This document shows, piece after piece, positions 28,974 to 30,506 of a stretch of DNA of 64,000 nucleotides (positions within the stretch are counted from its first letter, which is position 1; every line of letters begins with the position of its first letter). Made by a program: the position numbers and the translations under genes. Source of the stretch: Candidatus Baldrarchaeota archaeon (GTDB lineage: Archaea; Asgardarchaeota; Baldrarchaeia; Baldrarchaeales; DXJG01); NCBI GenBank assembly GCA_019056805.1, contig DXJG01000009.1, forward strand, positions 126,015-190,014, written 5' to 3'. The notes under the pieces were generated by a model. It did not search any database and was not told where the DNA came from. It worked only from the letters and a program-made list of their open reading frames with translations.

Positions 28974-30506
28974 TCAAAACTTAACAAAATCATTACTTTT
29001 CCGCATATTAACATTGAAATCGAAATTTTGACGACCGCTTTTTAATTCACGTAGCCTTTTTTCAATAGCATAAAGTTTTCCAACCCAAGACCTATAATAT
29101 TTAAAATAATTTTCCACGGAAATTAAACCGTCTTCAAAATATCGTTTCAATTCTTTTATTGTTTCTTCTGTTTCATATTTCTCTTTCTCGAGCTTAAATA
29201 TCTCCATCTTCAACTTATCTTCTGAACCACGAGGACTGTATGAAATCTCATGAAACACAACATTTTTCGAAACGTTAGAATGGCTTACATGTTCAGTTTC
29301 TGTAATTTTTTTAATTCTATTTAGAATTCTCTCAACTTTCATTTTTAAATCTGAAGTTTCTAACATTAAACTAGACACTTTGGAGGTAACAAAAGTATCC
29401 TTTAATGAGTATTTTTCGAAGTTTAATGCGATGTTAATATAGTCTTTTACTAATGGTAACATATTTGATGGGAAGCTAAAAGTAAGTTCTCCGTCATTAC
29501 ATTTTATAATTAGTCGTTTTATCAATCTACCCTTTATCTCCACATCTCTGATACGTTCTAATGGAATCTCAAAAGATTTGTAAAAAGATTTTTTAAATAA
29601 TCCTTTTTCAGCTAGGAAAATAAGCCGCTTATCAGTTAGAAATAGCTTTCCCCCTTCCTTTGGCACCCTTATGATATCAGATCCAGAAAACTTCGCGTTT
29701 TGAATCGCATATATAGGTTTCTCATCAAAATCTAATGATAAAATATCCTTATATTCACTAAATTCTTGACAATGTTTATACAGGGAGGAGACTAAAATTT
29801 CTAATTTCGAGAGCTTTTCTTCGATTTCCATTAAAGACTCATCTACATAATTCTTATAGTCGTTTAAATCTGCCTCAATTCTAGTTAAAATACTTCTAAG
29901 ATAAGGAAGATCTTCAACTTTAAACTGTTTTTCGATGGAAAACTTTGGCCCAATTGATAAAAGTAAACTTCCAATTTCCTCAATTTTCCCTAAAATTCTC
30001 GTTTTAACCAGGCTATAATCATTAAAAACATCCGTTAAAGTCCTTTCAATTACTGGATAATTAAAAAACCGGGAACGTCTAACGAAAATTAAAGTTCTTT
30101 TGACGTAATCAAATTTACGAGCAAATTTTCCCAACTTAACATAACCATACTTTATCTCAAAAGAAAGTTTTCTAAATTTCGCTTTCAAGGTAGCTTGTTC
30201 TTCTGCAAAATCAACTACCTCGGTAGAGCCACATTTGGAACAAGTCTTCACATACTTGGTAACAAAAACGACTTTCTTACTCTTACAGTCTTCACAAGAA
30301 TAATTGGATAAATCCTTATTTCTCCCTTTTCCAGTCTTAAGCTCTTTAACATTCTTTGACCCGCAGGTCAAGCAAATTGGAAACTTTTCTATTTTGACCG
30401 ACACGCAATTACGACATAACCCTGCTCCACACGTCCTACATATCCACTCAACTTCCTTCAATCCACACTTATGGCAGATTTCTCTCTCTGTATAAAAGTT
30501 TTCCAA
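28974..30506 (-). CDS. zinc-finger (FYVE/B-box-like) + PH/GRAM-like + coiled-coil protein with C-terminal ESCRT-I headpiece-like hairpin
   Basis: CHKC-x9-CRTC-x4-CRNC-x11-CLTC; GRAM/PH-like GGKLFLTDKRLIFLAEKG...IPLERIRDVEIKG; last ~56 aa align without gaps to the Vps23-like protein C terminus (43473-44204). Confidence 0.7.
   Translation of the reverse strand: MENFYTEREICHKCGLKEVEWICRTCGAGLCRNCVSVKIEKFPICLTCGSKNVKELKTGKGRNKDLSNYSCEDCKSKKVVFVTKYVKTCSKCGSTEVVDFAEEQATLKAKFRKLSFEIKYGYVKLGKFARKFDYVKRTLIFVRRSRFFNYPVIERTLTDVFNDYSLVKTRILGKIEEIGSLLLSIGPKFSIEKQFKVEDLPYLRSILTRIEADLNDYKNYVDESLMEIEEKLSKLEILVSSLYKHCQEFSEYKDILSLDFDEKPIYAIQNAKFSGSDIIRVPKEGGKLFLTDKRLIFLAEKGLFKKSFYKSFEIPLERIRDVEIKGRLIKRLIIKCNDGELTFSFPSNMLPLVKDYINIALNFEKYSLKDTFVTSKVSSLMLETSDLKMKVERILNRIKKITETEHVSHSNVSKNVVFHEISYSPRGSEDKLKMEIFKLEKEKYETEETIKELKRYFEDGLISVENYFKYYRSWVGKLYAIEKRLRELKSGRQNFDFNVNMRKSNDFVKF

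What the first reader, a model, noticed from the sequence alone, without database searches (positions are those of the whole stretch)
28974..30506. Candidate third ESCRT-I subunit: zinc finger + PH/GRAM-like + headpiece protein
SEEN: 510-aa protein next to ESCRT-III/Vps4. Its last 56 residues (FKLEKEKYETEETIKELKRYFEDGLISVENYFKYYRSWVGKLYAIEKRLRELKSGR) align without gaps to the C terminus of the UEV/Vps23-like protein (LELESEKIAVEDLIKSLNEKFESGDIQPSDYYKLYKRYRKELYLINKKLEELRKGE) with 23 identities by eye. The N terminus has FYVE/B-box-spaced CxxC pairs (WICRTCGAGLCRNC). The middle has a GRAM/PH-like stretch (GGKLFLTDKRLIFL...IPLERIRDVEIKG). ESTABLISHED: the eukaryotic ESCRT-I headpiece is built from helical hairpins of Vps23, Vps28 and Vps37; Vps36 GLUE is PH-like and Vps27/Hrs carries FYVE. 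INFERENCE: this may be a Vps37-position subunit that adds membrane targeting, combining roles spread over ESCRT-0, -I and -II in eukaryotes.
Basis: partly seen in the sequence, partly recalled or inferred. Interest (0 to 1): 0.88.

Follow-up and report, generated by a model that had tools for sequence, protein, structure and literature searches.

The report
Asgard zinc-PH-headpiece ESCRT-I protein
This is a real Asgard-archaeal protein that combines zinc fingers, a membrane-binding-type PH domain and the helical hairpin by which ESCRT-I subunits of the cell's membrane-cutting machinery hold together; the family and its likely role were already described in 2024, and what is added here is that it is missing in the one species whose ESCRT-I was shown to pair two copies of Vps23 instead.

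Summary
On the minus strand, 28974..30506 encodes 510 aa: six CxxC pairs, a helical region, a PH-like domain and a C-terminal hairpin matching the window's own UEV/Vps23 (23/56 identities; phmmer 1.3e-6). A family profile finds yeast Vps23 headpieces in the PDB at 3e-7. The gene sits tail-to-tail beside ESCRT-III in 31 of the 32 genomes where both lie on one contig. The window is from a Baldrarchaeota-like Asgard.

Makarova et al. 2024 (PMC10936438) define this family (Znr_PH_CC_SB, cog.011556), call it a likely ESCRT-I component and expect the PH to be membrane-associated. Three corrections: the hairpin is Vps23-type, and nothing in the sequence points to Vps37; the zinc fingers are B-box/zinc-ribbon-like, not FYVE; the PH is bPH_3/GRAM-like with a GLUE-like fold, not split GLUE.

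New and testable: Odinarchaeum LCB_4, where Vps23 was shown to homodimerise and bind one Vps28, lacks the gene. The protein may be the usual third headpiece subunit, replaced there by a second Vps23. Physical interaction is unproven. A side find is a transmembrane beta-helix protein in this genome carrying a Vps23-type hairpin plus RING.

The parts
28974..30506 (-). Znr-helical-PH-SB protein, 510 aa, TTG start
   Evidence: relatives
30222..30482 (-). N-terminal zinc region (residues 9-95): six CxxC pairs, B-box / zinc-ribbon-like
   Evidence: 12 invariant Cys in 23 relatives; Pfam
29739..30209 (-). helical bundle (residues 100-256), no significant match to a solved structure
   Evidence: AlphaFold2; Foldseek best E 0.086
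29424..29723 (-). PH-like domain (residues 262-361), bPH_3/GRAM, net basic in all 23 relatives
   Evidence: Pfam 4.9e-6; Foldseek Vps36 GLUE 2cay_B TMt 0.61, 2hth_B 0.63; charge
28995..29222 (-). C-terminal helical hairpin, steadiness box / Vps23 core (model helices 429-458 and 464-504; aligned core 437-492)
28168..28833 (+). ESCRT-III (Snf7), tail-to-tail neighbour
   Evidence: Pfam Snf7 9.7e-20
27299..27952 (+). ESCRT-III (Snf7)
   Evidence: Pfam 1e-14
26067..27221 (-). Vps4 (MIT-AAA-Vps4_C)
25383..26063 (-). Vps25 (ESCRT-II)
   Evidence: Pfam 7.9e-14
43473..44204 (+). Vps23-like: UEV + steadiness box
   Evidence: Pfam UQ_con 4e-13, UEV 1.3e-6, Vps23_core 1.4e-4
44206..44814 (+). Vps28, with headpiece hairpin at its N terminus
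   Evidence: Pfam VPS28 1.5e-13; family hairpin profile 3.8e-7
45113..45862 (+). Vps22/EAP30 (ESCRT-II)
   Evidence: Pfam EAP30 1.5e-27
42270..42503 (-). ubiquitin-like, ends GG
   Evidence: sequence; synteny with the Odinarchaeum locus
42500..42760 (-). small RING protein
   Evidence: sequence; hit of the SB-RING query, 63% identity

Best explanation
It is a Baldrarchaeota-type member of the Asgard family Znr_CC_PH_SB (asCOG cog.011556). SHOWN: zinc region, helical bundle, PH-like domain and a Vps23-type helical hairpin in one protein, conserved across Asgard families and linked to ESCRT-III. INFERRED: its hairpin packs with the hairpins of Vps23 and Vps28 as a third headpiece subunit, the place held by Vps37 in eukaryotes and by a second Vps23 copy in Odinarchaeum; its basic PH-like domain brings ESCRT-I to the membrane; its zinc region binds a partner or cargo; the whole positions ESCRT-II/III at the site.
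For: Hairpin: 23/56 identities with the window's Vps23, beyond all 20,000 shuffles. A family-only profile finds yeast Vps23 headpieces (2p22, 2f66, 2caz) at 3e-7 to 4e-6 and human TSG101 at 1e-3 in the PDB. Reciprocal test: a profile of UEV-protein hairpins alone recovers most family members outside f4 at 24-42 bits. Among 227 window ORFs the family hairpin profile returns the protein itself, Vps23 (2.5e-15) and Vps28 (3.8e-7); the only other hit is a marginal 0.0013 to the DNA polymerase, and Rad50, ESCRT-III and the locus coiled coil are not hit. Linkage: 31 of the 32 genomes with ESCRT-III on the same contig have it tail-to-tail. Distribution: strong matches (E<1e-15) in 66 of 99 Asgard genomes, 13 of 23 families. 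PH: bPH_3 above cut-off, GLUE-like fold, net basic in 23/23. Odinarchaeum (G007; its Vps25 is 100% identical to PDB 7pb9 over the solved residues) has no copy at the locus and no genome match except its Vps23, and that is the species with a Vps23 dimer plus one Vps28 (PMC9192718). Published assignment as likely ESCRT-I component (PMC10936438).
Against: No interaction, lipid-binding or complex-structure data; no complex could be modelled here. Hairpins of this general form also occur outside ESCRT: ABC-ATPase tails score 28-36 bits with the family profile, higher than Vps28, though they score only 11-16 bits with the Vps23 profile and show no Vps23_core among the families listed. In one family (f4) the hairpin is diverged (3-10 bits in the members scored) and no Vps28 is detected by Pfam, though the gene is kept. 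Family-like proteins in f5 lack a recognisable hairpin. The gene is convergent with ESCRT-III, so it is not in its operon.
Confidence: 0.72

Rival explanations
1. It is an ESCRT-0-like recruiter: it docks on ESCRT-I through its hairpin only at the membrane and is not a built-in headpiece subunit. The zinc and PH regions gather cargo and membrane.
For: Other Asgard proteins carry a steadiness box with unrelated domains (PMC10936438), so the hairpin can serve as a docking tag. The gene lies beside ESCRT-III, about 13 kb from the Vps23-Vps28 genes.
Against: Broad conservation with fixed synteny suggests a core part; Odinarchaeum suggests that the third hairpin place needs filling (PMC9192718).
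Confidence: 0.17
2. Bacterial-style bPH_3 + SHOCT protein: the hairpin is a general oligomerisation tail unrelated to ESCRT-I.
For: bPH_3 domains are often fused to SHOCT in bacteria (own knowledge), and SHOCT has a similar G-I-x-x-E-E-F pattern; ABC-ATPase tails show that such hairpins recur.
Against: No hairpin member listed SHOCT at E<=10; 9 of 11 matched Vps23_core; the similarity to Vps23 runs over the whole 56-residue hairpin and extends to solved Vps23 structures.
Confidence: 0.03
3. A membrane-shaping BAR-PH or DH-PH-like protein that acts on ESCRT-III directly.
For: Three long helices followed by a PH domain; Foldseek's top hits are DH-PH exchange factors; adjacency to ESCRT-III.
Against: Those hits have TM-scores of about 0.2-0.35 and rmsd around 20 A; the helical bundle modelled alone has no match below E 0.086 and no convincing sequence match.
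Confidence: 0.05
4. True orthologue of eukaryotic Vps37.
For: Would fill the same place in the headpiece.
Against: No Mod_r (Vps37) match among the listed families; Vps37B scores 0.66 against 2e-5 for TSG101 with the hairpin profile; Vps37 has no zinc-PH part.
Confidence: 0.03

Closest known systems
Znr_PH_CC_SB / Znr_CC_PH_SB, asCOG cog.011556 (Makarova et al. 2024, PMC10936438)
   Same: Three zinc ribbons (12 Cys), coiled-coil/helical region, PH, C-terminal steadiness box, Asgard ESCRT context; proposed ESCRT-I component with membrane-associated PH.
   Different: Nothing essential. Here the order is zinc-helical-PH-hairpin and the helical part is a predicted bundle.
Lokiarch_16740, listed as the Lokiarchaeal Vps23 homologue (PMC5840170), and the Loki/Thor freestanding steadiness-box protein with yeast two-hybrid contacts to Vps28 and (Loki) Vps22 (PMC9192718)
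   Same: ESCRT-I headpiece-type protein; Lokiarch_16740 is numbered next to ESCRT-III (Lokiarch_16760), as the family gene is next to ESCRT-III in f3 (L038).
   Different: Identity with this family is inferred from context; the sequences could not be checked here.
Vps23/TSG101 (Odinarchaeal and eukaryotic)
   Same: Vps23-type headpiece hairpin.
   Different: No UEV domain; zinc and PH regions instead.
Vps36 (GLUE)
   Same: PH-like fold (TMt about 0.6) and zinc fingers.
   Different: No zinc finger inserted in the PH, no winged helices.

Membership tests
Znr_PH_CC_SB (cog.011556) | three zinc ribbons (12 Cys) | tested here: met
   six CxxC pairs, all 12 Cys invariant in 23 sequences
Znr_PH_CC_SB (cog.011556) | PH domain | tested here: met
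   bPH_3 4.9e-6, over cut-off; 20/23 members match at E<=1
Znr_PH_CC_SB (cog.011556) | coiled-coil / helical region | tested here: met
   AlphaFold2 helices 100-251, high confidence
Znr_PH_CC_SB (cog.011556) | C-terminal steadiness box | tested here: met
Znr_PH_CC_SB (cog.011556) | direct sequence match to a named cog.011556 member | not testable with these tools
   the accessions are in figures and supplementary files that could not be opened
Vps23 core / steadiness box | profile match over the hairpin | tested here: met
   Pfam for this protein alone is below cut-off (0.16; 0.0068 for the tail), but 14/23 relatives match (best 3.1e-6) and the family profile hits PDB Vps23 at 3e-7
ESCRT-I headpiece subunit | physical assembly with Vps23 and Vps28 | not testable with these tools
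   complex modelling not available; indirect support only
Vps37 | Mod_r domain / nearest to Vps37 hairpin | tested here: not met
   no Mod_r match listed; Vps37B E 0.66
FYVE | FYVE profile and R(R/K)HHCR motif | tested here: not met
   motif absent by reading; no FYVE match for this protein; 4/23 relatives, best 0.011
Vps36 GLUE | PH split by a zinc-finger insert, plus winged helices | tested here: not met
   no insert or winged helices in the model; Pfam Vps36 0.049, under cut-off
SHOCT | SHOCT profile match of the tail | tested here: not met
   no match at E<=10 in 11 tails

The most novel reading that the evidence does not exclude
Ancestral Asgard ESCRT-I was a heterotrimer of Vps23, Vps28 and this zinc-PH-hairpin protein, so that membrane targeting was built into ESCRT-I. 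Lineages that lost it (Odinarchaeum, shown to use a Vps23 dimer) fill the third place with a second Vps23; eukaryotes fill it with Vps37 and moved membrane and cargo binding to ESCRT-0 and Vps36.
Probability: 0.4. Interest if true: 0.7.

Novelty: already known. Interest (0 to 1): 0.37.

Why it matters
If the third-subunit reading is right, it supplies the 'missing' third ESCRT-I headpiece subunit of Asgard archaea, explains why Odinarchaeum uses a Vps23 dimer, and makes the origin of the Vps37 place and of ESCRT membrane targeting directly testable in vitro.

Tried and rejected
SHOCT tail: no Pfam match. BAR or DH domain for the helical region: no structural match when modelled alone. FYVE: not met. 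Vps37 orthology: not met. The locus coiled-coil protein (42909..43349; Mod_r 0.011) as a hairpin subunit: only 8 bits with the hairpin profile. The specificity claim 'only ESCRT proteins have this hairpin' was dropped because ABC-ATPase tails match the family profile. Liu et al. 2021 is not held. No later experimental study of the family was found in the held library.

Full report
WHAT IS THERE. The ORF at 28974..30506 is on the minus strand (510 aa, TTG start). It has four parts: a zinc region with six CxxC pairs (residues 9-95), a helical bundle (100-256), a PH-like domain (262-361) and a C-terminal helical hairpin (429-504), with a low-confidence linker at 405-427. The parts come from Pfam, an alignment of 23 relatives and an AlphaFold2 model with mean pLDDT 84. 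In the alignment all 12 cysteines are invariant, and G460, E465 and Y479 of the hairpin are nearly so.

THE ORGANISM AND LOCUS. Two named records hold close relatives: Baldrarchaeota Yap30.bin4.67 (64% identity) and a MAG deposited as Odinarchaeota AUK032 (60%). Their contig lengths equal those of the family's contigs in G001 and G002, which are in the same genus as the window's genome, so the window is from a Baldrarchaeota-like Asgard. It holds a full ubiquitin-ESCRT set: E1, E2, ubiquitin, RING, UEV-Vps23, Vps28, Vps22, Vps25, Vps4 and two ESCRT-III.

IS THE HAIRPIN MATCH REAL? Yes. The 23/56 identities score 113 (BLOSUM62) against a maximum of 54 in 20,000 shuffles. A profile of the family alone finds the yeast Vps23 headpiece structures at 3e-7 to 4e-6 and human TSG101 at 1e-3 among 177,635 PDB sequences. 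A hairpin-only profile, which also contains the window's Vps23 and Vps28 hairpins, gives 2.7e-8 and 2.2e-5, with Vps37B at 0.66. A profile made only from UEV-protein hairpins recovers most family members outside f4 at 24-42 bits. Within the window the family profile returns the protein itself, Vps23 and Vps28; the only other hit, 0.0013 to the DNA polymerase, is marginal. A caution: C-terminal tails of ABC ATPases in other Asgard genomes score 28-36 bits with the family profile, so the hairpin shape alone does not prove ESCRT-I membership. They score only 11-16 bits with the Vps23 profile, and Pfam gives them generic coiled-coil families.

CONSERVATION. With the family profile, 66 of 99 Asgard genomes in 13 of 23 families have a strong match (E<1e-15; my tally). 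In all 32 genomes where the gene and an ESCRT-III gene lie on one contig they are within 3 kb, and in 31 of them tail-to-tail. Chance for one genome is about 0.6% (rough estimate).

PRIOR ART. Makarova et al. [quoted passage not shown] Every one of these sequence features was tested here and met. Hatano et al. 2022 (PMC9192718) report a freestanding steadiness-box protein in Loki- and Thorarchaeota with two-hybrid contacts to Vps28 and, in Loki, Vps22. Caspi and Dekker 2018 list Lokiarch_16740 as the Vps23 homologue (PMC5840170). In family f3 the gene is next to an ESCRT-III, as Lokiarch_16740 is numbered next to Lokiarch_16760, so these are probably the same family; this is inference.

WHAT IS ADDED. 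G007 is Ca. Odinarchaeum LCB_4: a 1.418 Mb single contig whose Vps25 is identical to PDB 7pb9 over the solved residues. Its ESCRT locus has another gene where this one would be, and the profile finds only its Vps23; the second genome of that family (G023) has no match. That is the species in which Vps23 was shown to dimerise and bind one Vps28. The simplest reading is that this protein is the usual third headpiece subunit and that a second Vps23 substitutes where it is lost. Two further correlations are weaker. In f4, which keeps the gene, the hairpin is diverged (3-10 bits in the members scored) and no Vps28 is found by Pfam in the 8 genomes searched. In f5, where Vps23 and Vps28 are fused, only divergent zinc-helical-PH proteins without a recognised hairpin were found. 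Both could be lineage divergence.

MECHANISM. Shown: domains, conservation, linkage. Inferred: three-hairpin headpiece with Vps23 and Vps28; membrane targeting by the PH (net charge +2 to +11 in 23/23; GLUE-like fold); partner or cargo binding by the zinc region. Not shown: any binding.

SIDE FIND. The same genome encodes a 579-aa protein (L003:133-1872) with two hydrophobic segments, a NosD-type beta-helix between them, a Vps23-type hairpin (57 bits with the Vps23 profile) and a RING domain; a sister genome has a relative (62% over the C-terminal part). Other Asgards fuse hairpin and RING to other N-terminal parts. Makarova et al. mention SB-containing multidomain proteins in a figure that could not be seen, so its novelty is unknown.

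Noticed in passing
L003:133-1872 (own genome, contig C18, around 83.3 kb); relative L024:1495-3294: 579-aa protein: signal/TM, NosD beta-helix, TM, Vps23-type steadiness box, RING. It looks like a membrane receptor or E3 ligase tied to ESCRT-I. Related hairpin-RING fusions with other N-terminal parts: L040, L041, L042, L043.
   Followed up: partly
L045, L050, L051: ABC-transporter ATPases with a C-terminal hairpin that resembles the steadiness box; probably generic coiled-coil hairpins.
   Followed up: partly
window 42909..43349 (+); Odin counterpart L035:5445-5897: Coiled-coil protein of ~146-150 aa kept divergently beside RING and next to UEV-Vps23 in both lineages; weak Mod_r hit (0.011). 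A candidate stalk partner of ESCRT-I.
   Followed up: partly
window 44825..45112 (+); L036:7869-8165: 95-98 aa protein between Vps28 and Vps22, no Pfam match for the window copy; may be the separately encoded Vps28 C-terminal domain mentioned by Makarova et al. 2024.
   Followed up: no
window 54280..58320 (-): Family B DNA polymerase (1346 aa) that appears to contain an intein.
   Followed up: no
L053:1398-2819, L054:996-2483, L052:1038-2537: Divergent zinc-helical-PH homologues (f5 and f16) without a recognisable Vps23-type hairpin; in G050 about 24-30 kb from the ESCRT genes.
   Followed up: partly
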